Shown: one piece after another, positions 4,607 to 20,160 of the stretch
Numbering within the stretch: position 1 is the first letter of the stretch
How the letters are laid out: each line of letters starts with the position of its first letter
From: Gammaproteobacteria bacterium
GTDB taxonomy: Bacteria; Pseudomonadota; Gammaproteobacteria; Steroidobacterales; Woeseiaceae
Direction: 5' to 3'
NCBI GenBank assembly: GCA_030429005.1
Contig: JAUIDP010000014.1
Location: 1 to 55,092 of the forward strand
Length of the DNA stretch: 55,092 nt
The notes under the pieces: model-generated
Told to the model about the DNA's origin: nothing
What the model saw: the letters and a program-made list of their open reading frames with translations, nothing else
The model's database searches: none
Translations under genes and position numbers: made by a program

Positions 4607-5400
4607 CGTTGCTGCTCGCTGCGAATCGTTTCGAGATACGGACCAAAGCCATGCTCGCCGACCCAGTAGTGCACCAGGTTGGTAACACCGCGTCCGGTCA
4701 GCGTCGCGCCGGCAAGCCCGTCCACCTGGTAGCCGCTGTCGGCGGAGTTTTCGGCAACCGTGCCGCGAATCACCTCGATTCGTGCCGTGCCGGCGTCATC
4801 AAACAGCTGCTTGCCGCTCCACTGGGCCCGCCAGGCCGGCTTGTCGACCTGGTCGCCGAGACCCGGTGTTTCTGCATGCTGGTAGAAGCGCAGCCCACGC
4901 ACGGTATTACCGTCGTTTTCCAGCGCGAGATACCCGAACATCGTTGACCACAGCCCCGAACCATAGACCGGCAGAATGATTTGCTCGAGCGTCTCGCCGT
5001 CACGCACGAGGTAGACCGGCGCGTACTTCGCGCGCCGGCGGATCGAGGCGATATCAAGCGCCGCGGGAATTGCAATACCCGTTGCCGGGTCGCTGGCGGC
5101 AGCGAGCGGATCGAAGCCATCCACGCCCGGCGAATCGACATACTCGCCGGTGGCCAGGTCGACCATACGTGCCTCGATGCGATCGAAAGCGTCGCCGGCG
5201 GCGCCGTCCGGCGCCGACAGCCCGGCCACGTCGAGGATAATACGCTGCCGGTAGTCAGCCTCGTTTTGCTGCTGTTTCGGTTTCAGCAACACCGCGGTAC
5301 CGGAGACCAGCACCGAGCAAACAAGGCTCAGCACGACGGCGACCAGCAGCGTGCCAGTGACGCCGTCGCGCGATGCCTGCCCGCCAGCTGCTTCAGCCAC
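4603..5400 (-). CDS. nqrC: Na+-NQR subunit C (covalent FMN)
   Basis: NqrC carries a covalently bound FMN on the periplasmic side. The FMN attachment motif is [13 protein letters not shown] near the C-terminus, with the acceptor threonine at about residue 233, which is the ApbE target signature. I place the start at a GTG (5400) that overlaps the nqrB stop as GTGGCTGA and yields 265 residues, close to the usual length; the longer open frame adds about 20 residues unlike the family. One N-terminal membrane helix (about 16-37) anchors a soluble domain. Confidence 0.93.
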
Positions 5401-6601
5401 TGCGCTGCACCCTGCGCCTGACGTTTGCCTGCACGACGAAGTAGTCGATGACCGGCGCAAAGATATTGCCGAACAGGATGGCCAGCATGATGCCTTCGGG
5501 GAACGCCGGGTTGACGACCCGGATAACGAAAGTCAGGAACCCGATCAGCAGGCCGAAGATCCACTTGCCGGTGTCGGTATTGCAGGCGCTGACCGGATCA
5601 GTCGCCATGAAGATCGCGCCAAACGCGAAGCCGCCGAGGACGATATGCCATTCCCAGGGCATGCTCATCATCGGGTTGCTGCTGTCGATATAGCCCGCAA
5701 CAACGGCCGGGATAATCAGCCCGATAAACACACCGGCCATGATGCGCCAGGAGGCTATACCGGTGTAGATAAGGAATGCCGCGCCAAACAGGCAGGCTGC
5801 CGTCGAGGTTTCGCCGATCGAGCCCTGCATCTGGCCGAAAAACGCCTGGCTCCAGGTAAGCCCGCTGGCCACGACACCACTGACCCCTTCAATCGCGCTG
5901 ACCCCGAGCGCCGTTGCACCGCTGAAGCCGTCGACCGCGGTCCAGACGGCGTCGCCGGAAAGCTGCACCGGGTAGGCGAAATACAGGAAAGCGCGGCCCA
6001 CCAGCGCCGGGTTGAGGAAATTCTTTCCGGTGCCGCCGAACACTTCCTTGCCGATGACCACGCCGAAGCTGATGCCGATGGCAACCTGCCACAGCGGGAT
6101 CGTTGCCGGCAGGATCAATGCGTACAACATCGAGGTGACGAAAAAGCCCTCGTTGACTTCGTGGTTGCGAACACCGGCGAACAGGACTTCCCAGAAGCCG
6201 CCGGCGATCATCGTGACAATGTATATCGGCAGGAAATAACTCAGGCCAAACATGAAATTGTCGTAGGTGCTGTTCGGGTCGTGACCCGCACCGAGAAACG
6301 CAGTCAATGCCTCGCGCCAGCCCGGGTTGCTGTCGATGCCAAGGGCCAGCATCGCCGTGTGCGCCTGGTAGCCGGTATTCCAGATACCGATCAGTGCACA
6401 GGGCGTAACGGCAAACACGACCAGGATCATGACGCGCTTCAGGTCGATCGCATCACGTACATGCGGCGATCCGCGCGTGACGTCTGGCGGCGAATAGAAC
6501 AGCGTGTCCACCATCTCGTAGACGGCGTGCAGTTTCTCGAACCGCCCGCCGCGCAGGAACAGCGGTTCGAGATCGTCCAGTATGCCGCGTAATCCCTTCA
6601 T
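5393..6601 (-). CDS. nqrB: Na+-NQR subunit B (covalent FMN, riboflavin)
   Basis: NqrB is the large membrane subunit that forms the Na+ path and carries a covalent FMN plus riboflavin. The 402-residue protein has about ten membrane helices. The ApbE attachment motif DGFSGATALG places the FMN-bearing threonine at about residue 230. Family stretches such as PATIPLWQVAIGISFGVV and GKEVFGGTGKNFLNPALVG are present. Its ATG overlaps the nqrA stop (ATGA). Confidence 0.97.
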   Translation of the reverse strand: MKGLRGILDDLEPLFLRGGRFEKLHAVYEMVDTLFYSPPDVTRGSPHVRDAIDLKRVMILVVFAVTPCALIGIWNTGYQAHTAMLALGIDSNPGWREALTAFLGAGHDPNSTYDNFMFGLSYFLPIYIVTMIAGGFWEVLFAGVRNHEVNEGFFVTSMLYALILPATIPLWQVAIGISFGVVIGKEVFGGTGKNFLNPALVGRAFLYFAYPVQLSGDAVWTAVDGFSGATALGVSAIEGVSGVVASGLTWSQAFFGQMQGSIGETSTAACLFGAAFLIYTGIASWRIMAGVFIGLIIPAVVAGYIDSSNPMMSMPWEWHIVLGGFAFGAIFMATDPVSACNTDTGKWIFGLLIGFLTFVIRVVNPAFPEGIMLAILFGNIFAPVIDYFVVQANVRRRVQRSG

Positions 6602-7953
6602 CAGCCGTTAACCTCGATCTCGTCCAGTGTCTTGCGCAAATGCGGGCCATAATCGTACTTGCCGTTGCAAACGAACGAACACAACGCCAGGTCTTCCTCG
6701 TCCAGCTCCAGGCAGCCCAGTGCCTGCGCGCTGTCGGTATCCCGCACCAGCAGGGCTTTCAGCAATGGCGTCGGCAGGATGTCGAGCGGCATGATCCGTT
6801 CGAAACTGCCGATCGAGACCATGGCCCGGGCGCTGCCATTCTGCGTCGTCGTCAGGTCGTAGGCGCCACCGCGCAACCAGTTCCCGACATAGGCCCGGAT
6901 GGCCGAGTAGCGATTGACACCGGGACGCATCCAGGACAGGAATTCGCGCGGGCTGCCTTCGCGCAGCACACACACCTGGTTATGGTAGCGGCCCAGCCAG
7001 GCCGCGTGGCGCGCCGCGTGGTGACCCGCCAGCACTGACCCGGAGATAACCCGCAATTTCGACGGATTGACTTCGCTCTGCAGCAGGTCGCGAATACTGG
7101 CCCCGGCACGGGTCTTCAGCAATCGCGGACGCTTTATCTCGGGGCCACCGAGGGCAATGATGCGCTCGACACTGATGCGCCCGGTCAGAAACAGGCGGCC
7201 GATGGCAATGACGTCCTGGTAGCCGATATGCCAGGCAATGCGCGCAGCGCTGACCGGGTCGAGAAAATGCATGTGCGTACCGACAAGACCTGCCGGGTGC
7301 GGCCCGGCGAACTCGGCGTGTACGAAGCGGTCGCCGTCCGGACAACGGATGCCGCTGCCGGGTGCCGTGCAAACGTAGGTCTTGTCCTGCCCGAGCCTGG
7401 CGATAACCCGCAGGCCGGCCGCAAATGCCGCCGGGTCGCCGGTAATCACTACCGCAGGATCTGCCGCCAGTGGATTGGTATCGATCGCTGTAACGAATAC
7501 GGCCCGGGGCACGGCATCGGGCGCCGGAATGCGGCTGAACGGCCGGGTTCGAAACGAAGTCCACTGCCCCGATGCGACCAGGACTTCGCGGACCCGGTCG
7601 GCGGCGAGGCTATCAATTTGTTGCTCGTCGAACGCGTCAAAGCGGGCTTCGTCGCCGTCATCGTCAAGATCGATGACAACCGACTGCAACACGCGCCGCT
7701 CGCCACGATTGATCGCGCGTACGGTGCCGCTGCCGGGCGCCACGAACGGGACCTGCGGATTGCGCTTGTCGGTGTACAACGCCTGCCCCAGCGAGACGCG
7801 GTCGCCAACCTTGACGGCCATCGCCGGCTTGAGGCCCGGCGTATCGTGCCCCAGCAGTGCAACACTCAGGCACACAGGGGCCTCGCTTATTTCCTGCGAC
7901 GGACTGCCCGCCAGCGGAATGTCGAGGCCGCGCTTTATTCTGATGGGTTTCAA
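6601..7953 (-). CDS. nqrA: Na+-NQR subunit A
   Basis: NqrA is the peripheral cytoplasmic subunit of the pump, implicated in quinone binding. The family begins with a lysine-rich GLDIPI/L-AG motif, here KPIRIKRGLDIPLAG. No ATG or GTG lies at the right place, so I choose the TTG at 7953, giving 450 residues, the normal length; a longer frame runs back into the upstream gene with unrelated sequence. GGPEIKRPRLLKTRAG and the C-terminal CSFVCNGKYDYGPHLRKTLD motif fit the family. A rare TTG start may lower its initiation unless it is coupled to the upstream gene, 32 bases away. Confidence 0.94.
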   Translation of the reverse strand: MKPIRIKRGLDIPLAGSPSQEISEAPVCLSVALLGHDTPGLKPAMAVKVGDRVSLGQALYTDKRNPQVPFVAPGSGTVRAINRGERRVLQSVVIDLDDDGDEARFDAFDEQQIDSLAADRVREVLVASGQWTSFRTRPFSRIPAPDAVPRAVFVTAIDTNPLAADPAVVITGDPAAFAAGLRVIARLGQDKTYVCTAPGSGIRCPDGDRFVHAEFAGPHPAGLVGTHMHFLDPVSAARIAWHIGYQDVIAIGRLFLTGRISVERIIALGGPEIKRPRLLKTRAGASIRDLLQSEVNPSKLRVISGSVLAGHHAARHAAWLGRYHNQVCVLREGSPREFLSWMRPGVNRYSAIRAYVGNWLRGGAYDLTTTQNGSARAMVSIGSFERIMPLDILPTPLLKALLVRDTDSAQALGCLELDEEDLALCSFVCNGKYDYGPHLRKTLDEIEVNG

Positions 7954-9859: not shown

Positions 9860-9869
9860 AACCCGGCAA

Positions 9870-10409
9870 CTAATGTGAGCCGAACTCGTAGTTCAGGTTG
9901 AGCGTCAGGCGATCCAGGTCGCCGCCGCCAATCTGCATCTGTCCGTACTCGCCGTTCAATGACCAGCGCGGCTGGATCTTGTAGCCGGCGCCAATCGCCC
10001 AGGAGAATGCGTCGTCATAGCCGTTCGCACGTTCCGCCAGGTCGTTGCCGACGGTAACCGCCGTGGAGTCGAGATAACTCCAGCCCAACCGGCCGTACGA
10101 GATGAATCGGGTGCCGATCGGAACTGACATTTTCGTCGACAGTTCCCAGACGTTACCGCTTACTTCCACGCCAGTGTCTTCGACCAAACCCTCGGCGTCG
10201 AACAACCGCGTGTACGCGCCTTCAACAGCAAAACGTTCGCTCAGGTTGTAGCCGCCAAGAATCGTTGCCGACGGCACTGTTTCATCAAACCCGGAAAATT
10301 CAACCTGGTACGCGCCGCCGCCAAGGGCGGCGTAGAAAGTGCCTTTTTCGGCCGCCGTCACTGGCACGCTGATGGCGGCAATTGCCAGCAGCGTTGTTGT
10401 TTTCTTCAT
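9870..10409 (-). CDS. Small outer-membrane beta-barrel protein (porin-like)
   Basis: The 179-residue protein has a signal peptide (MKKTTTLLAIAAISVPVTAA) and then alternating amphipathic strands typical of an eight-stranded OmpA/OmpW-like barrel: GTFYAALGGGAYQVEF, ATILGGYNLSERFAVEGAYT, ISYGRLGWSYLDST, WAIGAGYKIQPRWSLNGEYG, LTLNLNYEFGSH. No peptidoglycan-binding domain is attached. It has its own consensus promoter, an AGGAGG ribosome site and a strong terminator, so it is probably well expressed. Substrate or structural role cannot be told. Confidence 0.82.
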   Translation of the reverse strand: MKKTTTLLAIAAISVPVTAAEKGTFYAALGGGAYQVEFSGFDETVPSATILGGYNLSERFAVEGAYTRLFDAEGLVEDTGVEVSGNVWELSTKMSVPIGTRFISYGRLGWSYLDSTAVTVGNDLAERANGYDDAFSWAIGAGYKIQPRWSLNGEYGQMQIGGGDLDRLTLNLNYEFGSH

Positions 10410-10455
10410 TTTATGGCCCTCCTTCAGGCCAAACCCGCAGGTCGCGGGCGAAACG

Positions 10456-10483
10456 ATATTACGCCGACGCCAATGGCCGTCAA
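10456..10483 (-). promoter_or_regulatory. Promoter of the beta-barrel gene
   Basis: On the minus strand TTGACG and TAATAT are separated by 16 bp, ending about 46 bases before the ATG at 10409, which is itself preceded by AGGAGG. This is a near-consensus housekeeping promoter. Confidence 0.65.
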
Positions 10484-10550
10484 GCGGAATAAATGTATTA
10501 AAAACAGTAGCTTGTTGCGCAGGAATCGGGACCGACCGCGCGCTGTTGTA

Positions 10551-11864
10551 TCACGCTTCGCGCAGATATCCCCAGCAGTGCAGGCGGTCGTGATCTTCGT
10601 ACCAGCGATCGCCGATGTCGGTGCGGTAGTACATGTTCGGTATCAGGATGTTCCTGACACGCTGGTAGGCCTGCGCCTGCGCCTGCCGTACGGACAAGCC
10701 CATGCCGGTCACAATCAGCACGACACCGGAATTGCCGGTGATCAGCCATTCGCCATTCACTTCGCGCACGTCCTCGATATGAATGCCCTCGTACTTGGGC
10801 TTGCGGAAAATGATGATGCGGTCCCTCGAGTTGGCGGCGAAAGTTTTCGGATCGTTGTAGGGAAACGGCGGCACGACGACGCGCACGCCGATCTGGAAGC
10901 CCGTGCGGGTCTTGAAGTTCTTCAATTCGCCACTTGCCATGCCGTAGAGAAACTCGCCCATCGGCATCGAGATGCCGTCGCTCTGGATGCTGATCGTCGG
11001 GTAGCCGAAGCGTGCCGTGAATTCGAGCGGATAGATGCCCTGCCCGTTGACGATGCAGTTGACGTCGATGTAGCCGACGTAGTGTTCTTCGGCCAGCTTG
11101 TCGCGCAACTTTGCCAGCGTCGCCGAGAACAGCTTGTTGGGCCCGCTCCAGTACATGCAGGTGCCCATCTCGCCGGTGGCCGGACCGATATTGCCCGGGA
11201 ACAGCGGCTTGTGCTCAAAGTTGATGTTGATCGGCATCATGAAGTCGCTGCCATTGAAGAACGCACCGACGGCCACTTCGACTCCGCGAACGCGCCGCTG
11301 CAGCTGAAAAACCTTGACGGTATCCGCATAGACAGCCTTGTAGGACTGCAACACGTGGATAACGTCGGTACCATCCTCTTCCTGGCCGACGAACAGCAGC
11401 CGCTTGATATTCTGTGCTTCGCCGCTTGGCTTGATGACGTAGGTCGCGGGGTGCGCCCGCACGTAGTCGATGGCTGTGTCGAAGTCATTGAACTCCTCGA
11501 ACGGGATGATCGACACGCCGTGTTTGCGGAGTTCCTGCTGGCCGAAGGTGCGGTCGTCTTCGAGCCGGTCAGTGTAGGCGGTACCGCCGACAACATGTTT
11601 GCCGGCCGCGCGCAGCCTGGCGGCTTTTTCTCCCTGCCCGAGCACATCGTCGAACACGATGACATCCGCCCAGTCGACATGGTCTTCCCAGCTGTCCACT
11701 TTGGGCACGAAACCATCGCCGATCAGGCGCTCGTCTTCGTTCTCGATGTAGTAACGGACTTCGTTGCCGTCCCGCGATACCAGCCAGGCGATATCGCTGA
11801 TCAACGCATCGATCGACACAAACAGAAACCGTTTTGGCTCAAACCGCTTTGGCTCGGCACTCAT
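10551..11864 (-). CDS. PurD-like ATP-grasp ligase
   Basis: The 437-residue protein resembles glycinamide ribonucleotide synthetase in its ATP-grasp fold: TYVIKPSGEAQ (ATP-binding strand, about residue 140), the central GPATGEMGTCMYW, YVGYIDVNCIVN and YPLEFTARFGYP, then a C-terminal domain with TGMGLSVRQAQAQAY. The N-terminal 100 residues (FLFVSIDALISDIAWLV) do not look like the PurD N-domain, so a purine role is unlikely. ATP-grasp enzymes join a carboxylate to an amine or thiol through an acyl phosphate. It is divergent from a FemAB-like GNAT gene 92 bases away, and the pair may build an amide-linked product together. Start chosen at the ATG with GGGAG upstream. Confidence 0.75.
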   Translation of the reverse strand: MSAEPKRFEPKRFLFVSIDALISDIAWLVSRDGNEVRYYIENEDERLIGDGFVPKVDSWEDHVDWADVIVFDDVLGQGEKAARLRAAGKHVVGGTAYTDRLEDDRTFGQQELRKHGVSIIPFEEFNDFDTAIDYVRAHPATYVIKPSGEAQNIKRLLFVGQEEDGTDVIHVLQSYKAVYADTVKVFQLQRRVRGVEVAVGAFFNGSDFMMPININFEHKPLFPGNIGPATGEMGTCMYWSGPNKLFSATLAKLRDKLAEEHYVGYIDVNCIVNGQGIYPLEFTARFGYPTISIQSDGISMPMGEFLYGMASGELKNFKTRTGFQIGVRVVVPPFPYNDPKTFAANSRDRIIIFRKPKYEGIHIEDVREVNGEWLITGNSGVVLIVTGMGLSVRQAQAQAYQRVRNILIPNMYYRTDIGDRWYEDHDRLHCWGYLREA

Positions 11865-11956
11865 TCCGACTGCTCCCACAGGAATTGGCAGGTCAACATA
11901 TCTGAGTCGGAGTATCCGCGTGTAGTATTGCGGCATCAAGTAGAAGAGGCACCGTT

Positions 11957-12895
11957 TTGATAAGGACAGAAACCGACCCCCAGGCTTGCCGGACCCTCTG
12001 GGACCAGTTCTCGCCACGGCAAAACGCCTGGGATGACTGGGACCTGATGTATGCCTTCCACGACCAGGATCGCCACCGCTTTCACTTCCTGGTGCACGAG
12101 GAGAATGCGGAGGCGAACGGACTGGTTCCGCTGGTCTTCGATACAACGCAGGACCGCTACATGCTGATGGCTGGCAGCTACCCCGACGGCAGGGAGTTAT
12201 GGATCCGCCACCCTGACTTCCCGGAATTTTTCGAGCAGTTCCCCGATCGCACGGTGCTGTTTGATCTCAGGCAGGGCTGTGCCGACGATATCGTTCGCAT
12301 CCACCCGCAATACGCGGATCATTTCGCGGAGCAGGACCACCGCTATTTCCTCGTTCCTGCGAGTTTCGACTTCGACTTCGTCAATCACCTCGATGTGCTC
12401 GGCAAGGACAGGAAACAGAAGTTCCTCTACGACCTGCGCAACATCCGCAAGCGTGAACCACAGCTTGACTGGAGCAACGACAACGAGTCCGACCTGTTCA
12501 TCGAACTGGTGAACCGCAACTTCGGCGCCGAGTCTGACTATGCGAATCCGGACGATGCCAAAGAAGTGCGCCGGGTTATTGGCGAACTGCAGTCCAGCGG
12601 ACGCCTGAAGACGCTGACGATCTCGATTGACGGCGTGCGACAAGCCGTTTCAATGTCACTGTTGCAGAACAACAGGATGGTCGCGCTGTATTCGTCCAGC
12701 AACAACGACTTCAACAACCTCGGCAAACTGTTGAATGTCGAGACGATCCAGGAAGCCTGCCGCCTGCGGGTCGACGAGATCAGTTACATGACCGGCATGC
12801 AGTGGAAAGCCAACTGGAAAATGCAAAGCGAGGTTTGCTGCACCTTTCGCAAACCAGTGGCGACCGCTTGGAATCAGTCTAATATGAATCCGTAA
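11957..12895 (+). CDS. BioF2/FemAB-like GNAT acyltransferase
   Basis: The 312-residue protein matches the GNAT family related to FemAB and BioF2-like (PF13480): the middle KDRKQKFLYDLRNIRKRE and the C-terminal core LYSSSNNDFNNLGKLLNVETI followed by RLRVDEISYMTG are typical of the acyl-CoA or aminoacyl binding half. The initiation codon appears to be TTG at 11957, after AGAGG. The later ATG would cut away conserved N-terminal sequence. No signal peptide, so it acts in the cytoplasm. Its divergent neighbour is an ATP-grasp ligase, which suggests one pathway with two amide-forming or N-acylating steps; the substrates are unknown. Confidence 0.7.
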   Translation: MIRTETDPQACRTLWDQFSPRQNAWDDWDLMYAFHDQDRHRFHFLVHEENAEANGLVPLVFDTTQDRYMLMAGSYPDGRELWIRHPDFPEFFEQFPDRTVLFDLRQGCADDIVRIHPQYADHFAEQDHRYFLVPASFDFDFVNHLDVLGKDRKQKFLYDLRNIRKREPQLDWSNDNESDLFIELVNRNFGAESDYANPDDAKEVRRVIGELQSSGRLKTLTISIDGVRQAVSMSLLQNNRMVALYSSSNNDFNNLGKLLNVETIQEACRLRVDEISYMTGMQWKANWKMQSEVCCTFRKPVATAWNQSNMNP

Positions 12896-12983
12896 TCCAG
12901 CGGCAATACAGACCGTGCAGGACCTTTGAACGACCGATCGCGCTGCATATGGCAAATGCGCGACTTTCGAACTCACCGAACCT

Positions 12984-12989
12984 TATAAT
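12984..12989 (+). promoter_or_regulatory. Consensus -10 element of the coiled-coil/AAA+ operon
   Basis: A perfect TATAAT lies 80 bases before the ATG at 13069 in a 173-base intergenic region. A matching -35 is not evident at 16-18 bp, so an activator or alternative factor may assist. The start codon itself has AAGGA at good spacing. Confidence 0.4.
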
Positions 12990-13068
12990 CAAGCGATTCG
13001 TCCCCATGTCAATCCTACAAAGCCCTCAATTCGGGACGCTGTAACACTCGCCAAGAAGGATACGAATA

Positions 13069-14784
13069 ATGGCTGACAATCAAGAAAGCGGCGCGAAACT
13101 CAAACGGCAGGAAACCACCGACGACATTCTGGATATAGCTCTGAACAGGGATCGCAAGTCACAACGATCGGAAAAAAGCGAGACTTCGCAGGAACAAAGC
13201 ACGACGGCCAGGAAATTTGCCAACATAGAAAGCAATGCGTACTACAGAATTGTGTTTGGTGAAGGCGAGCCGGAAGCGAAGAAGGAACAGGTTGCGAAGC
13301 TGCTTGCATACGACACGACGCTGGACAAGACCGAAAACAAGGAGAGGCTGGCTGCATTCGAGCTATTTAAAGAATGGCTCATGGACCAACGCAAGGACAT
13401 GGCTCAGGAGATAATTAACCTGACCGACACCGATGCGTTTTCAGAGCTGAAAGACGTTTTCGACCAGATGAACCAGGGGTTGCTGAACTTTGAAAAGCAG
13501 ATGGCCCCGCTTACAGATATCCTCGATGCAGTTTACAAGTTGCGCATGGCCAGTGATGGAGCAATGTTCGATGTCTTCCGGGAAATCCAGGAAGACAAGG
13601 AAGAGGAGGCGCGTATCGCAGCTTTGCGCTCTGAGCAGGATGCGGAACTGGAACGACTGAATCTCGAAGTAGCGTCTATTCGAGAGCGCAACCTCGTGTT
13701 GCAGGGACAAAAATCCTGGTTTGGACTGGGCGGCACCAAGAAAAGCGCGCTCCAGCAAATCGCAAAGAATGAGAGTCAACTGGACGGTGTGCGGTCGTCA
13801 ATCTCCGTTCTCGAATCCGAAATCGACAACACCAAGTTCAGCAGGGAGTCTCGATTTGCCCAGTTTGCGGAGGAAAAACGCAAGCTCCGTGAATTGCTGG
13901 ATATCACATCCGAGGAACACAAGGAGCGCCAGCAAGCGCTGGTCGACAGCGCCAATGGCTTTGTCGAAATGGCAGAAACTCGAACTTCGAATGTCCTCGA
14001 ACATCTGGAGGGGATCAATGACCAGGTTGATCGTCTCGGTGATAGCAATGGTGGAATGCGAAATGTGTACGCAGTAATAAGCGAAGCTGTGGAAGAGGCA
14101 GAAGCAGCGAACACCCGGACCAGGGACAGCCTCGTCGAAGGACCTGACGGGGAAAGCAATATTCAGCAAATGAATCGTGAGAACAAGAAGATGGCTGTCG
14201 AGGAACATGTCACAGCACTGACTGCTGCGAAAGTAGACACGATGGGTACGTTTAGCGATCTGACTGCGGAAAGTTACCGCATAAAGTCCATGAAGGACTC
14301 CAACAACAACCAGGTTGCAAAGACCCGCAGCTTGAACAGTAAAGGTGTTTCCGGCGTTGCAAGCCGGCTGAGCACAGTTTTGCAGGGTGTTTCCATGGCG
14401 GCGCTGTCTGAGTCGTCGGAAGTAGCCCAGATGACGCTGGAGCGGATGAACGAACAGACGAATCGAATCACTCAGAAAGAAGCACTGAAGAATGCAATGG
14501 GCATCAGCCAGGAAAATGACGCGCTCGTGAAAGCTATCGAAGAGCTTGAGAGCTACGGCAAGATTGCCAGAGCCGCGACCGACATCAGTCGCGAGGGCTA
14601 CCAGGAAATGAAACAGAACCTTGCTGAACTCGAGAGAACGGCCAGAGACGTTTCCGATGCCGTCAAAGACGCAGTTGCAGTCGGTGCTGATGTGATGAGT
14701 GACAGTTCGTCCGATGACAAGGAACGCGCGAATACCGAAACATCCGGTACGGGCAGTGATCCGTTTGGCCGTCTGAACCAGTAG
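13069..14784 (+). CDS. Cysteine-free coiled-coil protein of unknown function
   Basis: I do not recognise this 571-residue protein with confidence. It contains no cysteine, no signal peptide and no membrane helix. Charged residues are dense and heptad-like coiled coil covers roughly residues 170-320 (EEEARIAALRSEQDAELERL onward) and 480-540. A short glycine/aromatic island, SWFGLGGTKKSALQQI near residue 217, interrupts the first coil. The tail is Ser/Asp rich and disordered (DVMSDSSSDDKERANTE). The C-terminal helical part slightly recalls TelA-type toxic-anion-resistance proteins, but this is only an impression. It is first in an operon with a ClpB-like motor five bases downstream, so it may be a scaffold, substrate or filament for that motor. 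Composition is more A+T-rich than most neighbours. Confidence 0.75.
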   Translation: MADNQESGAKLKRQETTDDILDIALNRDRKSQRSEKSETSQEQSTTARKFANIESNAYYRIVFGEGEPEAKKEQVAKLLAYDTTLDKTENKERLAAFELFKEWLMDQRKDMAQEIINLTDTDAFSELKDVFDQMNQGLLNFEKQMAPLTDILDAVYKLRMASDGAMFDVFREIQEDKEEEARIAALRSEQDAELERLNLEVASIRERNLVLQGQKSWFGLGGTKKSALQQIAKNESQLDGVRSSISVLESEIDNTKFSRESRFAQFAEEKRKLRELLDITSEEHKERQQALVDSANGFVEMAETRTSNVLEHLEGINDQVDRLGDSNGGMRNVYAVISEAVEEAEAANTRTRDSLVEGPDGESNIQQMNRENKKMAVEEHVTALTAAKVDTMGTFSDLTAESYRIKSMKDSNNNQVAKTRSLNSKGVSGVASRLSTVLQGVSMAALSESSEVAQMTLERMNEQTNRITQKEALKNAMGISQENDALVKAIEELESYGKIARAATDISREGYQEMKQNLAELERTARDVSDAVKDAVAVGADVMSDSSSDDKERANTETSGTGSDPFGRLNQ

Positions 14785-14789
14785 TTTTC

Positions 14790-17006
14790 ATGAGCGCGCC
14801 TACAGAAGACCTGGTCCACGATCACCTGATACGCGGACACGACTACCTCAACTACTTTCCCGACTTTGAACTGGTCGGGCGTGACCAGGTACTGCACAAA
14901 CTAACGGCAATACTCATGCGTAAGCACGCAAACAACGTATTGCTGATCGGGGCCGGTGGCGTTGGCTGCTCCGCGATCTGCCTGGGACTGCAAGAAAGCA
15001 AACATAAGCCGGACACTCCATTCGATATCGTAAGCAAAAGATTCTTCTGGCTCGACAGTGACTGGCTGTTCTCCAGCGGTGATGCACAAAACATTGGAGA
15101 TGGTTTTTCGAAAGCGTTGCGCACGTTATCGCGGACACAAGATTCCGTACTGATTATCGATGATATGCGCGACTTTATTGAAGCCGCGCGAAACAATGGT
15201 TGCACACATTTGATCAATGCGCTGATGCGCGCGCTGAAGAAGAAGAAATTTCAGGTCATCATAGAATCGAGAGACGACGACCTGGAAACAGTCCTAAAGT
15301 GTCATTCCGATATGCTGGAAAGCTATACGATGTTGGACATCGCCGAGCCTGACGAAGATTTGTTGCGGGAAATAGTTGGAAGTGCCGCTTCGGTACGACT
15401 TAGAAAACACCACAAGATCCGGATATCGGACCAGGCGATTGAGGCTGCGATCGATGTAACCAGCAAGTACCGGATACGGGACCTCGGGCTAAGCCGAGCC
15501 CAACCCGAGCGCTCACTGACACTATTGGACCGCGCCCTAACCACGTATCGACTGAAAGCGCATGCTCGGGACCCGCAGCTGGATACACTGGACGAGGAGC
15601 TGGCAGCACTGCGCAAGGAAAAGAAAGATTCAGATGCGTCAGCTGTACAAAAGCGCATTGAAGACATTTCTATTGCGTGGTCGGAGCGCCAACAGAACAT
15701 CAAAAGCATATTTCAAGAACTTCGTGACGGCGAAGATGCGATTCGTGATCTCGAGGCCGAGATTGAGGCCCACCGCGAACGCGAAAGGCAGACACTACAG
15801 GACGCATCACGTGACGAAGAGGCCGGCGACAACAGTGCAAATTATGTTTCTTTTGCAGCACGTGTATCCGGGTCCGGATACGATTCCGAAGCAGTAACGA
15901 AACTCAAATCTCAAATCTCGAAGTACGAAGCAGAGGTTGGAAAAAACAAGGAGAAGTTTGATGCTCTTACAAATGAGATCAACAATGCTCTTGAATTGAC
16001 CCGCGACCATGTGCTCGAAGAATTCAGCAGCATATCCGGAATACCGGTCAGCAAATTGACCCAGGATGAACGGGCCAAGCTGCTGCATCTCGACGAAAAT
16101 CTGGAGAATCGCGTTTTCGGGCAGCATGAAGCCGTAACCCTTCTGGCAAACCAGGTTCGGGTTGCCCGCGCAGGCTTACAGAGCCCCAACAAGCCACAAG
16201 CGGCATTTATGTTTCTCGGGCCATCCGGTGTCGGCAAGACAGAGCTGGCAAAGGCGCTGACAGTCGAATTGTTCGACGACGAACGCTCGCTGCTTAGATT
16301 CGACATGTCGGAATACATGGAAAAGCACGCGGTTGCCAAGCTTATCGGGGCTCCACCTGGCTACGAAGGCTACGAGGCCGGCGGAATCTTGACGAACGAA
16401 ATGCGTAGAAATCCGCGACGCATTATTCTGTTTGATGAAATCGAGAAAGCACATCCGGACATATTTAACGTGTTCTTGCAAATTCTCGACGATGCAAGAT
16501 TAACCGATAACCGCGGACTAACTGTGTCGTTTCGCGATGCGATAATTCTGATGACGACAAATATCGGAACGACACATTTTCTTGCGGAAGAAGATTTCGA
16601 CATTGCCAAAGGAATGGCTATTGAAGACCTTGACGCGCAGTACCGCCCCGAGTTCCTTGCTCGCTTCAATGGCAAACGAAACATTGTCTGCTTCAAGCCA
16701 CTTTCGCTTGAAGTCATTGAAAAGATTGCAGCACGGGATATTCGGGCGCTCAATGACATGGTAAGGATGTCGCTTCCGGACCTATCGGTCGATATCGACG
16801 ATAGCTCACTGCGCGCGATGTGCCGAGACCACTACAAACCGATAACCGGTGCACGAGGTATTACCGGCTACATCGAGGGAGTCATCAAACCGGAAATCGC
16901 CAATACCGTGCTGTTCAATCAACAAGCCAGCGGCACTGTGGTCGTCCGCTATGACGAGAAAACCAGGGAAGTTGTACTCCATCCACCCCAGTCAGCTACC
17001 GGATAG
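14790..17006 (+). CDS. ClpB-like AAA+ protein with inactive first ring
   Basis: This 738-residue protein is a double AAA+ Clp/Hsp100 ATPase lacking the usual N-terminal Clp_N domain. D1 (about 25-230) is degenerate: Walker A reads GAGGVGCS at residues 54-61 with Cys in place of the essential Lys, Walker B is LIIDDM instead of a DE pair, and the paired arginine fingers are replaced by MLESYTM. A coiled middle region (about 265-420) leads to the ClpB-like SGIPVSKLTQDERAKLLHL. D2 is intact: GPSGVGKT (about 477-484), pore loop GYEGY (524-528), ILFDEIEKAHPD (545-556), YRPEFLARFN, and sensor GARGI. The ClpP-docking IGF/IGL loop is absent, so it likely remodels proteins rather than feeding a protease. 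It sits between a coiled-coil gene and a membrane protein gene. Confidence 0.85.
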   Translation: MSAPTEDLVHDHLIRGHDYLNYFPDFELVGRDQVLHKLTAILMRKHANNVLLIGAGGVGCSAICLGLQESKHKPDTPFDIVSKRFFWLDSDWLFSSGDAQNIGDGFSKALRTLSRTQDSVLIIDDMRDFIEAARNNGCTHLINALMRALKKKKFQVIIESRDDDLETVLKCHSDMLESYTMLDIAEPDEDLLREIVGSAASVRLRKHHKIRISDQAIEAAIDVTSKYRIRDLGLSRAQPERSLTLLDRALTTYRLKAHARDPQLDTLDEELAALRKEKKDSDASAVQKRIEDISIAWSERQQNIKSIFQELRDGEDAIRDLEAEIEAHRERERQTLQDASRDEEAGDNSANYVSFAARVSGSGYDSEAVTKLKSQISKYEAEVGKNKEKFDALTNEINNALELTRDHVLEEFSSISGIPVSKLTQDERAKLLHLDENLENRVFGQHEAVTLLANQVRVARAGLQSPNKPQAAFMFLGPSGVGKTELAKALTVELFDDERSLLRFDMSEYMEKHAVAKLIGAPPGYEGYEAGGILTNEMRRNPRRIILFDEIEKAHPDIFNVFLQILDDARLTDNRGLTVSFRDAIILMTTNIGTTHFLAEEDFDIAKGMAIEDLDAQYRPEFLARFNGKRNIVCFKPLSLEVIEKIAARDIRALNDMVRMSLPDLSVDIDDSSLRAMCRDHYKPITGARGITGYIEGVIKPEIANTVLFNQQASGTVVVRYDEKTREVVLHPPQSATG

Positions 17007-17014
17007 GATCTGAC

Positions 17015-17767
17015 ATGCCTGATGAGCAATCCCGGGAAGAACTGCTCCGTCGCGCTCGGGAACTGCACAACAAAGCCGGGGAGTCGGGGGACGACCGTTC
17101 TCGTCTTCACGAATCGACTGCTGAGCGATTGAGTCGCCAGAACCCGCTTGTGAGATCGTTGTTTCGTGCTTCCGATAGATTGCGCGATTCGCTGGGGCCG
17201 GTTGGCACTGTTCTGAGTTATTTGATTCGCTGGCTGGGAATATGGCTCAGGTGGTTGGCATTCGAGCCGACCAACGGTGATCTGAATTCCGTACGCTTCT
17301 CAAAATTTCGCGCACTCCGAAACCTGCTTCTGACCATTCTGGTCATATTTGGAGTTCACATTGCAGCAAGCGCTGCCTATTACTACGGCACCCATTTCGA
17401 AGAAACAGTGTACGTAACAGGCAAACAGGAAATCGTTACCGGCGAGCTCTACCAGTTCGGTGGCTGCACATCCCTTCCATGCAGCACCGCTGCCGACAAT
17501 GGCAAATTCTATCTCGTCGAGTCGAGCCTCTATTTTCCGCTCTTGCTGTATCCCGAGGAAGAAGTCTTTGCCAATATTCCACACCAAAACGCCGCATGTA
17601 ACGTCCGCGGATATGGAATCTACTTTCGGGCCTTGCGGTGGATTTATAAGACGTTCCAGCTTTATCAACATGTCGTCGACGTATCCTGCAGACCTTATAC
17701 GGAAGACGAAATTCGCCGAACGGTAACCGACGGGGAAATTGTTCGTGATCCGGTATCGGAAGATTAA
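17015..17767 (+). CDS. Membrane-anchored protein with Cys-containing outer domain
   Basis: This 250-residue protein has a charged, disordered N-terminus (about 1-45), an amphipathic or membrane segment VGTVLSYLIRWLGIWLRWLA (about 67-86), a clear membrane helix LLLTILVIFGVHIAASAAYY (about 103-122) and a C-terminal domain of about 125 residues. Four cysteines lie in that domain (CTSLPC, NAACNVRG, VDVSC), which suggests disulfides and a periplasmic location. The ETVYVTGKQEI and YGIYFRALRWIYKTFQLYQ segments loosely resemble DUF1523-type domains, but I would not assert it. It ends the operon, eight bases after the AAA+ gene, and is a natural membrane anchor for it. Confidence 0.72.
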   Translation: MPDEQSREELLRRARELHNKAGESGDDRSRLHESTAERLSRQNPLVRSLFRASDRLRDSLGPVGTVLSYLIRWLGIWLRWLAFEPTNGDLNSVRFSKFRALRNLLLTILVIFGVHIAASAAYYYGTHFEETVYVTGKQEIVTGELYQFGGCTSLPCSTAADNGKFYLVESSLYFPLLLYPEEEVFANIPHQNAACNVRGYGIYFRALRWIYKTFQLYQHVVDVSCRPYTEDEIRRTVTDGEIVRDPVSED

Positions 17768-17806: not shown

Positions 17807-19687
17807 GTGAGCACAGTCTGCAAGAGCGCTGAACAGGCAGCGCGGACCATCGTCGAGCGAGTCGGCAAAACTGTCGTACTGGGCCTGCCCATCGGCGTCG
17901 GCAAAGCAACGCAGATCGCAGACGCGCTGTATGCGATGGCCGAACAAGACAGCGAACTGTCGCTGACGATCTTTACCGGCCTCACACTGGAACCGCCTGC
18001 CGGCAACAGCGAACTCGAAAAGCGTTTTCTCGAACCATTGGTCGAACGGCTCTACAGCGACTGGCCGGTGCCGCGCTACTCCGAAGCCATACGTACCGGT
18101 ACACTGCCAGGCAATGTTTCGATCCGGGCATTCTACCTGCGGCCGGGCGCCTACCTGGGCAACGCCTACGTGCAGCAGCAGTATGCCAGCATCAATTACA
18201 GCCAGGTGGCCGGCGAGCTGATCCGTATGGGCGTCAACGTTATCGCCCAACTGGTCGCCGTCGATCCGGAGCAGCCTGGCCGCTACAGCCTGGGTGCAAA
18301 CCCGGAAGTCACCCTCGACCTGTTGCCCTATCTCGACGAACGCCGCGAGGCCGGACTTGCTGCACTCGTCGTTGGGCAGGTCAATCACACGATGCCCTAC
18401 ATGTACGGCGCTGCGGATGTCGCCGGGGAAACACTCGACATCGTACTGGACGATCCGGGTGCCGACTTTCCGTTGTTCGCGTTGCCGAATCGCAACGTCG
18501 CTGACGGGGACTATGCAACCGCCATGCACGTCGCCAGCCTGGTACGCGACGGTGGCACGCTGCAGGTCGGCATCGGCTCGCTCAGTGACGCCGTTGCTCA
18601 TTGCCTGATCCTGCGGCACACCGAACCCGCCCTGTTTGCCGAAGTTCTGCAGCAACTGCCGGGCGGTTCAGCGGTGCGGCGCCGGCGGCAGTTGCCCATC
18701 GAACAGGAACCCTTTAGCAAAGGCCTGTTCGCATCGACCGAGTTGCTGAGTGACGCGCTGTATTCCCTTTTCGAGACCGGCATCGTCCGTCGCCCCGCCG
18801 ACGCCGACGATCCGGCCGTGATACACGCCGGCTTTTTCGTCGGTTCCGGCGCACTGTACGAGAAACTCCGCAACTTGCCTGCGGATCAGCGCCGGCTGAT
18901 TGACATGACACGCATCTCGCAGGTCAATACGCTGTTCGGCAACGAAGCACGGAAGCGCGCACAACGGGGCGATGCCCGTTTCATCAACGAGACGATGATG
19001 GTTACGCTGCTCGGTGCCGCTGTATCCGACGCGTTGGAAGACGGCCGCGTTGTCAGCGGCGTCGGCGGCCAGTTCGATTTTGTCTCGATGGCCCAGTCAC
19101 TCAACGACGCGATGTCGATACTGATGTGTCGCGCCCGCCGGCAAAGCGGCGGCAAGGCAACGTCCAATATCCGCTGGAATTACGGCCACAATACGGTCCC
19201 GCGGCACCACCGCGACGTGTTCGTGACGGAATACGGAATCGCCGCGACCCGCGGGTGCAGTGATCGGGACACAATCGATCGTCTGCTGCACATCGCCGAT
19301 GCCGAGTTCCAGGCAGGGCTGCTCGAATCCGCCCGGTCGGCCGGCAAAGTCGAAACCGCCTATACGCTGGACAGCGACGCCGCCAGGAACACGCCGGCTG
19401 CGTTACAGTCGGTTTTCGACGCCTATCGTGCACATTTCCCGCCCTACCCGTTGGGGACGGAATTCTCGGCTGATGAACAGGCGCTGGTCGACGCACTGGG
19501 TTGGTTACAATCAAACACGGCGACAAAGGGGAGCACCGTGGCAACGATGCTGCGCGCCGTGACGGCCAGTGCCGCCGGGGACAACGCGGGCGCGTTGGCG
19601 CGCATGCGCCTGGATCGCCCGTCCGGACCCGGGGAGATGCTGTTGCAGAAGATGTTAAGTCTGGCGCTGAAGAGGACCCGTCAATGA
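17807..19687 (+). CDS. Acetyl-CoA hydrolase/CoA-transferase family protein
   Basis: The 626-residue protein belongs to the acetyl-CoA hydrolase/transferase superfamily: an N-terminal domain with PIGVGKATQIADALY, a middle with LVRDGGTLQVGIGSLSDAV, and the C-terminal motif VSGVGGQFDFVSMAQ with VTEYGIAATRG close to the end. These enzymes move or hydrolyse CoA from short acyl groups through a glutamyl-CoA intermediate. It is longer than the usual 430-500 residues, with an insertion around residues 270-340. The GTG start is the only good candidate. It overlaps a thioesterase gene by ATGA, so the pair probably works on the same acyl-CoA pool. Confidence 0.85.
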   Translation: MSTVCKSAEQAARTIVERVGKTVVLGLPIGVGKATQIADALYAMAEQDSELSLTIFTGLTLEPPAGNSELEKRFLEPLVERLYSDWPVPRYSEAIRTGTLPGNVSIRAFYLRPGAYLGNAYVQQQYASINYSQVAGELIRMGVNVIAQLVAVDPEQPGRYSLGANPEVTLDLLPYLDERREAGLAALVVGQVNHTMPYMYGAADVAGETLDIVLDDPGADFPLFALPNRNVADGDYATAMHVASLVRDGGTLQVGIGSLSDAVAHCLILRHTEPALFAEVLQQLPGGSAVRRRRQLPIEQEPFSKGLFASTELLSDALYSLFETGIVRRPADADDPAVIHAGFFVGSGALYEKLRNLPADQRRLIDMTRISQVNTLFGNEARKRAQRGDARFINETMMVTLLGAAVSDALEDGRVVSGVGGQFDFVSMAQSLNDAMSILMCRARRQSGGKATSNIRWNYGHNTVPRHHRDVFVTEYGIAATRGCSDRDTIDRLLHIADAEFQAGLLESARSAGKVETAYTLDSDAARNTPAALQSVFDAYRAHFPPYPLGTEFSADEQALVDALGWLQSNTATKGSTVATMLRAVTASAAGDNAGALARMRLDRPSGPGEMLLQKMLSLALKRTRQ

Positions 19688-20160
19688 ATATTGCAGGCAA
19701 GACACCGTCGGAGTCGGCGATCGAACAAAACGTCTACAAGGTGTTTCCGAACGACCTGAATTCCAAGTACACCGTGTTCGGCGGGCTCGTGATGGGCCTT
19801 TGCGATCGCACGGCATTGATTGTCGCGGAACGGCACAGCGGCAGCGCATGTGTCACGGCAGCCGTCGACAGCCTGAATTTCGTCGCGCCTGCTCGCTCGG
19901 GAGAGACACTTGTCATCAAGGCCTCCGTGAATCGCGCCTGGAACAGCTCCATGGAACTGGGCGTGCGTGTGCTGGCAGAAAACACCCACAGCGGCGAGTC
20001 GCGCCACGTCGTGTCGGCCTATTTCACCTTCGTTGCACTCGGTGAAAACGGCAAGCCGATCACCGTACCGGCAGTCGTTCCGAAAACGCGCGAAGAAAAA
20101 CGCCGGTTCAAGGAAGCGGACCGCCGCCGCAAGCAACGCCTGAAGAACCGCAAGCAATAA
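19684..20160 (+). CDS. Hotdog-fold acyl-CoA thioesterase
   Basis: The 158-residue protein has the acyl-CoA thioesterase II/YciA pattern: FPNDLNSKYTVFGGLVMGLC (Asn and the following VFGG turn of the active site), then VDSLNFVAPARSGETLVIKA and HVVSAYFTFVAL. It hydrolyses acyl-CoA to free acid and CoA. The C-terminus is a basic tail (RRFKEADRRRKQRLKNRKQ), which is longer than typical and could bind nucleic acid or membrane. The ATG overlaps the preceding stop codon, which fixes the start. Chain-length preference cannot be read. Confidence 0.88.
   Translation: MNIAGKTPSESAIEQNVYKVFPNDLNSKYTVFGGLVMGLCDRTALIVAERHSGSACVTAAVDSLNFVAPARSGETLVIKASVNRAWNSSMELGVRVLAENTHSGESRHVVSAYFTFVALGENGKPITVPAVVPKTREEKRRFKEADRRRKQRLKNRKQ

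What the first reader, a model, noticed from the sequence alone, without database searches (positions are those of the whole stretch)
13069..17767. Candidate new three-gene system: coiled-coil protein, ClpB-like motor, membrane protein
Three genes with gaps of only 5 and 8 bases encode a large cysteine-free coiled-coil protein, a Clp/Hsp100 AAA+ protein without ClpP-docking loop or N-domain, and a bitopic membrane protein with a Cys-containing outer domain. No transposon or partner gene is attached. I know of no described system with this composition. A coiled-coil polymer plus AAA+ disassembly motor plus membrane anchor resembles, in layout only, ESCRT-III/Vps4 or PspA-type remodelling. It could handle membrane stress, phage defence or protein disaggregation at the membrane.
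Basis: partly seen in the sequence, partly recalled or inferred. Interest (0 to 1): 0.88.

Follow-up and report, generated by a model that had tools for sequence, protein, structure and literature searches.

The report
Three-gene membrane motor of jumbo phages
Three neighbouring genes, for a long coiled-coil protein, a half-disabled ClpB-like motor and a membrane anchor, travel together through giant bacterial viruses and scattered bacteria, and appear to form an undescribed protein machine at the cell membrane whose job is still unknown.

Summary
Three genes in fixed order, coiled-coil (cc), ClpB-like (clp), membrane protein (tm), recur in 43 cc-bearing loci: the window, 24 other bacterial loci (Gamma- and Alphaproteobacteria, one Desulfuromonadales MAG) and 18 viral records, including the cultured 490-kb Agrobacterium phage Atu_ph07. 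Clp follows cc in 43 of 43, tm in 39 of the 40 loci that reach far enough. No other neighbour is constant. The window copy is GC-poor and cc is absent from 98 relatives. Cc and tm have no convincing family match. Clp lacks the D1 Walker-A lysine and Walker-B glutamate in 38 of 38 sequences read but keeps both in D2. Best explanation: an inner-membrane-anchored, single-engine Hsp100 that remodels its coiled-coil partner, or clients it holds; assembly and function are inferred. ESCRT-III/PspA, ClpB, ClpV and Dodola membership fail on tested features; TelA is inconclusive. I found no paper describing the trio.

The parts
13069..14784 (+). cc: long all-helical coiled-coil protein, 571 aa, member of an unnamed family
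   Evidence: ORF; 43 family rows; no convincing Pfam, PHROG or PDB match; AlphaFold2 all helix, pLDDT 72
13711..13734 (+). cc residues 215-222 K-S-W-F-G-L-G-G, conserved glycine/aromatic loop between two long helices
   Evidence: loose pattern [FWL][FWL]G[FYLWM][GLA] in 41 of 43 rows; between helices 165-212 and 225-254 in the model
14761..14781 (+). cc C-terminal tail after a low-confidence linker, short motif P-F (residues 565-566)
   Evidence: PF within the last 12 residues in 31 of 43, any F in the last 10 in 40 of 43; pLDDT under 50 at 534-563 and 567-571
14790..17006 (+). clp: ClpB-like Hsp100 motor without N-domain, 738 aa
   Evidence: separate from ClpB in the tree, support 100*
14949..14972 (+). 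degenerate D1 Walker A (GAGGVGCS, Cys in place of Lys)
   Evidence: Lys absent in 38 of 38 members read, present in 5 of 5 ClpB controls
16218..16241 (+). intact D2 Walker A (GPSGVGKT)
   Evidence: Lys in 38 of 38, D2 Walker B Glu in 38 of 38
17015..17767 (+). tm: bitopic inner-membrane protein, 250 aa
17324..17386 (+). transmembrane segment of tm (hydrophobic window at residues 104-124)
   Evidence: helix 97-125 in the model
17390..17734 (+). outer domain of tm, possibly an OB-like beta barrel, with Cys151, Cys156, Cys195, Cys225

Best explanation
The trio encodes one machine at the cytoplasmic face of the inner membrane of Gram-negative cells. Shown by sequence: the three families occur together in fixed order; the motor has one ATPase ring with intact catalytic residues (D2, with its pore-loop aromatic) and one without (D1); the anchor has one main transmembrane segment. 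Inferred: tm holds the complex at the membrane through its N-terminal part and exposes a disulphide-bonded, possibly OB-like domain to the periplasm. The coiled-coil protein is the motor's dedicated partner, a membrane-near scaffold or assembly whose flexible PF tail or glycine/aromatic loop is gripped by the motor. ATP-driven threading by D2 then pulls cc subunits, or clients held by them, apart and resets the structure. It would work like a coiled-coil scaffold plus AAA+ disassembly motor plus membrane anchor, without detectable descent from ESCRT-III/Vps4. It is an accessory Hsp100, not a replacement for ClpB. Its selective value is most likely envelope integrity, or exclusion of competitors during infection.
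For: Co-occurrence: clp downstream of cc in 43 of 43 cc loci (two cut at a contig end, two with a broken frame); tm in 39 of the 40 that reach it. The other 65 ClpB/ClpA-like viral loci kept carry no cc in the DNA held. Pairwise-distance correlations over 37 complete loci: cc-clp 0.89, cc-tm 0.79, clp-tm 0.80. D1 catalytic residues absent and D2 ones intact in 38 of 38 read; five of 43 were not read (partial, broken or under the score limit). D2 pore loop GYEG or close to it in place of ClpB's GYVG. By a crude window, residues before the membrane segment are more positive than those after it in 29 of 38 tm proteins. In Atu_ph07 Cys151 and Cys156 are lost together. A canonical full-length ClpB coexists in 8 of 9 trio genomes; in the ninth it looks split over two contigs.
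Against: No physical interaction, localisation, polymer or phenotype has been measured. The cc model has low confidence at both ends, and no fold match stands above the helical-bundle background. In some phages 1-2.5 kb separates the genes (L101, L102, L028), so tight coupling is not essential. L137 carries cc and clp without a recognisable tm in the 3 kb that follow. 9 of 38 tm proteins do not follow the charge rule as measured, and 6 of 38 have five or more Cys after the window. Distance correlations partly reflect shared ancestry.
Confidence: 0.45

Rival explanations
1. Superinfection exclusion or anti-phage system: a jumbo phage, or a bacterium that captured the module, uses the membrane-anchored motor to block or dismantle an incoming competitor at the inner membrane.
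For: The module is shared between tailed phages and scattered bacteria; starred branches force at least two phage/bacterium changes in quick trees. It is patchy: cc in 1 of 99 close genomes and 1 of 398 phylum genomes, the window's own in both; clp of this kind in 2 of 369 class genomes, the window's own and G496. It is a cassette at unrelated sites.
Against: No defence island seen: in 124 neighbours from 19 loci PADLOC (2023) at E 1e-10 lists 7 models (mad2 in 5 members, two PycC models in 2 and 1, the rest in 1 each). No nuclease, toxin or sensor domain found in the trio. No PADLOC match for cc or tm.
Confidence: 0.25
2. cc is not a polymer but an adaptor or holdase that delivers aggregated or membrane-inserted clients to a tethered disaggregase: an envelope proteostasis system useful to a cell under stress or under a long phage infection.
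For: The motor is of the ClpB type with a coiled region between the rings. Atu_ph07 carries several other Clp-type genes and a DnaJ, which its describers read as stress survival (PMC6102473, passages).
Against: No conserved stress-type promoter: the best sigma-32-like site is in the window and is not at that place in sister loci. D1 lacks its catalytic residues, unlike ClpB. The N-domain is missing.
Confidence: 0.25
3. A phage assembly or host-takeover module (for example membrane-proximal virion assembly) that bacteria keep as a remnant or reuse.
For: PMC7824862 (passage) suggests that jumbo-phage ClpA/ClpX proteins, naming AUZ95251.1, may act as translocases or aid virion assembly. The trio occurs in records of up to 608 kb.
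Against: The 20 bacterial clp proteins read keep the D2 catalytic residues, and bacterial copies sit among ordinary chromosomal genes as far as shown (25 of 118 Pfam families listed). In phages no non-trio neighbour family is found in more than 2 of 17 loci. Among INPHARED phages cc was found only in Atu_ph07, deposited twice. Whether the proteins are in virions was not readable here.
Confidence: 0.05

Closest known systems
ClpB/Hsp104 disaggregases (TIGR03346)
   Same: Two-ring Hsp100 layout, D2 catalytic and pore residues, coiled region between the rings
   Different: No N-domain, D1 Walker A and B residues lost, D1 pore-loop stretch replaced; 399-435 bits in nine genomes against a cut-off of 1232; found with cc
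Phage 'ClpB/ClpA' proteins, phrog_4871; Atu_ph07 'ClpB' AUZ95251.1
   Same: The window clp matches phrog_4871 at 1e-173; AUZ95251.1 is the clp of one trio
   Different: Treated only as a single Clp protein in the passages seen; partners not recognised there
Type VI secretion ATPase ClpV/TssH (TIGR03345)
   Same: Hsp100 motor acting on a dedicated partner assembly (recalled)
   Different: 345.8 bits against 884.95
ESCRT-III/Vps4 and PspA/Vipp1 membrane remodelling
   Same: Layout only: coiled-coil protein, AAA+ motor, membrane anchor; cc has a low-confidence C-terminal tail with a short motif
   Different: No PspA or Snf7 match in 15 cc members; the motor is of Hsp100 type
TelA / tellurite-resistance coiled-coil proteins (PF05816)
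   Same: All-helical; one weak BFVD fold match named tellurite resistance protein, prob 0.98, TM-score 0.21-0.30
   Different: Profile comparison at noise level, hhalign 5.7% and 1.5%, with 4 of 40 shuffles scoring higher
SPFH-NfeD pairs (recalled)
   Same: Coiled-coil scaffold with a membrane protein bearing an OB-type domain
   Different: No SPFH or NfeD match listed; here a motor is the constant partner

Membership tests
ClpB disaggregase (NCBIfam TIGR03346) | Whole-protein score over the curated cut-off | tested here: not met
   434.9 bits against 1232.1
ClpB disaggregase | Two functional ATPase rings | tested here: not met
   D1 Walker A Lys and Walker B Glu absent in 38 of 38 read; present in 5 of 5 ClpB controls
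Hsp100/Clp superfamily, D2 motor | Intact D2 Walker A and B, arginine finger, sensor 2 GAR, pore aromatic | tested here: met
   D2 Lys and Glu in 38 of 38; other motifs shown aligned for 38; Pfam AAA_2 3.5e-54 and ClpB_D2-small 5.6e-8
ClpP-dependent unfoldases (ClpA/ClpC/ClpX) | ClpP-docking IGF/IGL-type loop | tested here: not met
   absent in 36 of 37 stretches read of 38 given, one ambiguous VGL
T6SS ClpV (TIGR03345) | Whole-protein score over the curated cut-off | tested here: not met
   345.8 against 884.95 bits
T6SS ClpV (TIGR03345) | T6SS genes in the neighbourhood | tested here: inconclusive
   none among the 25 of 118 neighbour Pfam families shown; the other 93 were not listed
ESCRT-III / PspA | Snf7 or PspA/IM30 domain in the coiled-coil protein | tested here: not met
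   none among the 13 families matched by any of 15 members at E 0.1
ESCRT-III / PspA | Polymerisation on membranes, disassembly by the AAA+ partner | not testable with these tools
   needs biochemistry
TelA (PF05816) | Sequence-profile homology | tested here: inconclusive
   hhalign probability 5.7% and 1.5%; no Pfam TelA match in 15 members; one BFVD fold hit prob 0.98
Dodola defence system (DolA+DolB; partner recalled) | DolA partner beside a DolB-type Clp | tested here: not met
   clp matches DolB at 6.6e-26, but cc and tm match no PADLOC model at E 1
OB-fold outer domain | OB-type five-stranded barrel | tested here: inconclusive

The most novel reading that the evidence does not exclude
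A membrane-remodelling or envelope-guarding machine invented independently of ESCRT-III/Vps4: a coiled-coil scaffold, disassembled by a single-engine Hsp100 tethered to the inner membrane by an OB-domain anchor. It is carried by jumbo phages and exchanged with Gram-negative bacteria, where it protects or reshapes the inner membrane during infection or excludes competitors.
Probability: 0.3. Interest if true: 0.9.

Novelty: categorically new. Interest (0 to 1): 0.78.

Why it matters
A three-protein machine with two families that have no convincing match in Pfam, PHROGs or the PDB, and an Hsp100 whose first ring lacks its catalytic residues in every member read, has been counted as a lone 'ClpB' or 'ClpA' in the jumbo-phage papers seen. 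Recognising it as one unit gives a definite set of genes to test. It poses direct questions: what a membrane-tethered single-engine Hsp100 pulls on, and why both giant phages and scattered bacteria keep it. If it is a scaffold-plus-motor membrane system, it is an independent solution to the ESCRT/PspA problem. If it is an exclusion system, it is a kind outside known defence islands. Carriers whose record titles name strains exist (Halopseudomonas laoshanensis, H. bauzanensis, Aestuariivirga sp.), as does phage Atu_ph07, so it can be tested now.

Tried and rejected
TelA homology: suggested by one BFVD fold match and a recalled sequence resemblance. Profile comparison gave 5.7%, then 1.5% with a 43-row cc alignment, where 4 of 40 heptad-shuffled TelA profiles scored higher. 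In its favour, the real alignment spans 282 columns, against at most 131 in the eight best shuffles printed. Left as inconclusive.

Pore-forming-toxin-like folds (AhlB, SmhB, ClyA, YaxB rows) and STAT or 14-3-3 rows lie inside the helical-bundle background that the tool names. No claim made. No PspA, Vipp1 or ESCRT-III chain was in the 50 rows shown, which proves nothing. The cc profile has one nominal PDB hit at E 1.4e-4 over 56 positions, an RnfG-type subunit, which I take for chance.

Heat-shock promoter: an 11 of 13 match to a recalled sigma-32 consensus upstream of cc in the window (2 of 200 shuffles reach it). Of 24 loci scanned, L119 also has 11 of 13 at another spacing (8 of 200), L117 has 10 (15 of 200) and L115 has 10 far upstream (20 of 200); the best matches of L115 and L116 are not at the window's place. 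Rejected as a family feature.

tRNA-linked insertion: 1 tRNA in 22 bacterial loci scanned. Rejected.

Empty-site test: the gene downstream of the trio was found in 10 of 62 genomes, own included. In four congener regions the downstream pair is conserved, but the genes upstream of the trio are not found beside it, apart from weak partial hits to other flank genes in two. No clean empty site; inconclusive.

Defence island and prophage context in bacteria: 124 of 131 listed neighbours were scanned (six L131 proteins and one 1739-aa L138 protein left out), from 19 of 25 bacterial loci. PADLOC listed 7 models; 25 of 118 matched Pfam families were shown, all of ordinary kinds.

Plasmids: no cc match (E 0.01) or tm match (E 0.1) in 72,556 records; clp finds only matches under 60% identity there, the listed ones ClpB-like at about 34%.
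Full report
OBSERVATION. They encode a 571-aa cysteine-free coiled-coil protein (cc), a 738-aa ClpB-like protein (clp) and a 250-aa protein with one main transmembrane segment (tm). Their GC is 0.51-0.52 and GC3 0.55-0.61, while 16 other window ORFs that I picked have 0.56-0.64 and 0.66-0.80. Cc is found in 1 of 99 genomes of the window's relatives, the window's own, and in 1 of 398 genomes of the phylum with a family profile, again its own. The D1 part of clp has family-level matches in 2 of 369 class genomes, the window's own and G496 (56% identity); the next best is 27%. This points to horizontal acquisition. A clean empty site could not be shown.

THE TRIO RECURS. tblastn of cc found the isolated jumbo phage Agrobacterium phage Atu_ph07 (490 kb, two records of one phage) and nothing else among 50,697 phage records at E 0.1. 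It found nothing among 72,556 plasmids. A clp scan of IMG/VR kept the best 80 of 166 loci. Thirteen of them, at 38-53% identity, carry cc upstream; two more start inside clp; the other 65 ClpB/ClpA-like loci carry no cc in the DNA held. A cc-profile scan gave 16 viral loci, five of them new, on records up to 608 kb. A scan of the GTDB-based genome collection (84,980 species) with a five-row cc alignment gave 24 bacterial loci. Record titles name strains of Halopseudomonas laoshanensis, H. bauzanensis, Aestuariivirga sp., Taklimakanibacter lacteus and Pokkaliibacter plantistimulans; others are MAGs, among them a 6.6-Mb Pseudohongiella chromosome (74% identity in cc), several alphaproteobacteria and a 6-kb Desulfuromonadales contig. 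That scan uses short peptide patterns, so 24 is a lower bound. L117 is the G496 locus seen before (L098), and L123 and L124 are near-copies.

In all, 43 distinct loci hold cc: 25 bacterial and 18 viral. Clp lies downstream on the same strand in 43 of 43. Of these, L127 and L134 are cut at the contig end, and L132 and L136 have a frame break. Tm follows in 39 of the 40 loci whose sequence reaches that far: 38 read in full and L112 in part. L127, L134 and L136 end before it. L137 is the exception, with no tm found in the 3 kb that follow. Thirty-seven loci have all three genes readable. Eight of eight trio genomes tested hold a single cc copy. In phages an insert of up to about 2.5 kb may separate the genes (L101, L102, L028).

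Nothing else is constant. In 17 loci, mostly viral, no non-trio family occurs in more than 2. In 25 bacterial loci one non-trio family occurs in 7 (at varying places; directly downstream only in the kin L120, L126 and L135), and every other in 3 or fewer, among close kin. Of 131 listed bacterial neighbours from 19 loci, 124 were scanned. The 25 of 118 matched Pfam families shown are ordinary, and PADLOC lists 7 models at E 1e-10. One tRNA occurs in 22 bacterial loci.

ARE THE VIRAL RECORDS VIRUSES? Terminase large subunit (phrog_2) was found in 11 of 20 records, including 10 of 10 records of at least 150 kb; the records without it are 125 kb or shorter. The same search also rings in 6 of 14 cellular control genomes, so it is support, not proof. 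Atu_ph07 is an isolated phage whose genome its describers read as lytic (PMC6102473: abstract, passages and the structural-protein section seen).

THE MOTOR. Clp starts at D1: its residue 28 aligns with ClpB profile position 175. It scores 434.9 bits for ClpB against a cut-off of 1232.1, 345.8 for ClpV against 884.95, and matches phrog_4871 at 1e-173. In 38 family members the D1 Walker-A lysine is absent in 38 (Cys in 26) and the D1 Walker-B glutamate is absent in 38 (Asp in 35, Asn in 3). D2 keeps both in 38. Five true ClpB proteins have all four. Five of the 43 loci were left out of this count because clp was partial, broken or under the score limit (L127, L132, L134, L136, L137). The D1 pore-loop stretch of ClpB (GAKFRGEFEER in the controls) is replaced in the family, while the D2 loop reads GYEG or close to it, with Phe for Tyr in Atu_ph07. 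A ClpP-docking loop is not seen in 36 of 37 stretches read. A canonical full-length ClpB is present besides the trio in 8 of 9 carrier genomes; in the ninth it looks split over two contigs. Clp is therefore an extra, single-engine Hsp100.

TREES. Rooted on ClpB, the family is one clade (100*), and starred branches force at least two phage/bacterium changes in both the clp tree and the cc tree. Both are quick trees with SH-aLRT support only and some long branches. The window lies in a ten-row bacterial clade, while an alphaproteobacterial clade (Dongia, Aestuariivirgaceae) nests among phages.

THE COILED COIL. No Pfam family is matched by more than 2 of 15 cc members at E 0.1; the best single value is 6.7e-4, in one member. 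The window cc has no PHROG match better than 0.057. The PDB profile search gave one nominal hit at E 1.4e-4 over 56 positions, an RnfG-type subunit, which I regard as chance similarity; the rest are E 0.086 or worse. AlphaFold2 gives long helices with mean pLDDT 71.9 and pTM 0.47. Conserved points are a K-S-[FW]-F-G-x-G-G-like loop between two long helices (loose pattern in 41 of 43) and a C-terminal P-F tail after a low-confidence linker (PF in 31 of 43, an F in the last ten residues in 40 of 43). Fold searches gave nothing clearly above the helical-bundle background. TelA was tested because of one fold match and was not supported.

MECHANISM. Shown: three co-occurring families in fixed order (pairwise-distance correlations 0.89, 0.79 and 0.80 over 37 loci; shared ancestry contributes), an Hsp100 with D2 but not D1 catalytic residues, and a membrane protein. 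Inferred: the three form one complex at the inner membrane; cc is the motor's dedicated partner; D2 threads cc, or clients held by cc, to take an assembly apart. I rate this at 0.45. The main rivals, superinfection exclusion or defence and an envelope proteostasis role, are set out in the fields. They are not exclusive of the mechanical model.

KNOWN OR NEW. In passages of PMC7824862 the clp of Atu_ph07, AUZ95251.1, is named as a ClpA-type chaperone that could translocate proteins or aid virion assembly. PMC6102473 speaks of ClpB gp492 (passages); that this is AUZ95251.1 follows from its product name. PMC11242549 mentions Clp proteins of a Sinorhizobium jumbo phage (passages). Passages of PMC7159879 on conflict systems show no such trio. 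Searches for the accessions and for descriptions of such a trio found nothing more (listings and abstract openings only). I therefore call the system categorically new, its motor being a new variant of Hsp100.

LIMITS. The paper library holds open-licence papers only. No complex prediction, no expression data and no phenotype were available. The bacterial prevalence is a lower bound. L137 breaks the three-gene rule once.

Noticed in passing
window 12982-13007: A sigma-32-like promoter word pair (11 of 13 to a recalled consensus, spacing 13) upstream of cc; 2 of 200 shuffles reach it, but the best matches of sister loci lie elsewhere.
   Followed up: yes
L137 (Rhodospirillales MAG), cc 9860-11629, clp 11714-14182: The only sufficiently long locus with cc and clp but no recognisable tm in the 3 kb downstream; a 338-aa ORF without a match to the trio lies there.
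   Followed up: partly
L132 1677-3826 and L136 about 5234-7056: Clp is split over more than one frame in these MAG loci, either decay or assembly error.
   Followed up: no
window 17807-20160: The acetyl-CoA hydrolase/transferase-type gene and the thioesterase gene downstream of the trio stay together in four congeners examined, while the genes upstream of the trio are not beside them.
   Followed up: partly
L028/L097/L109, L108, L110 tm genes: Three phage anchors have only two Cys after the membrane segment instead of four; in Atu_ph07 the Cys151-Cys156 pair is the one missing.
   Followed up: partly
Agrobacterium phage Atu_ph07 genome: According to its describers this phage carries seven Clp-type genes (PMC6102473, passage).
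   Followed up: no
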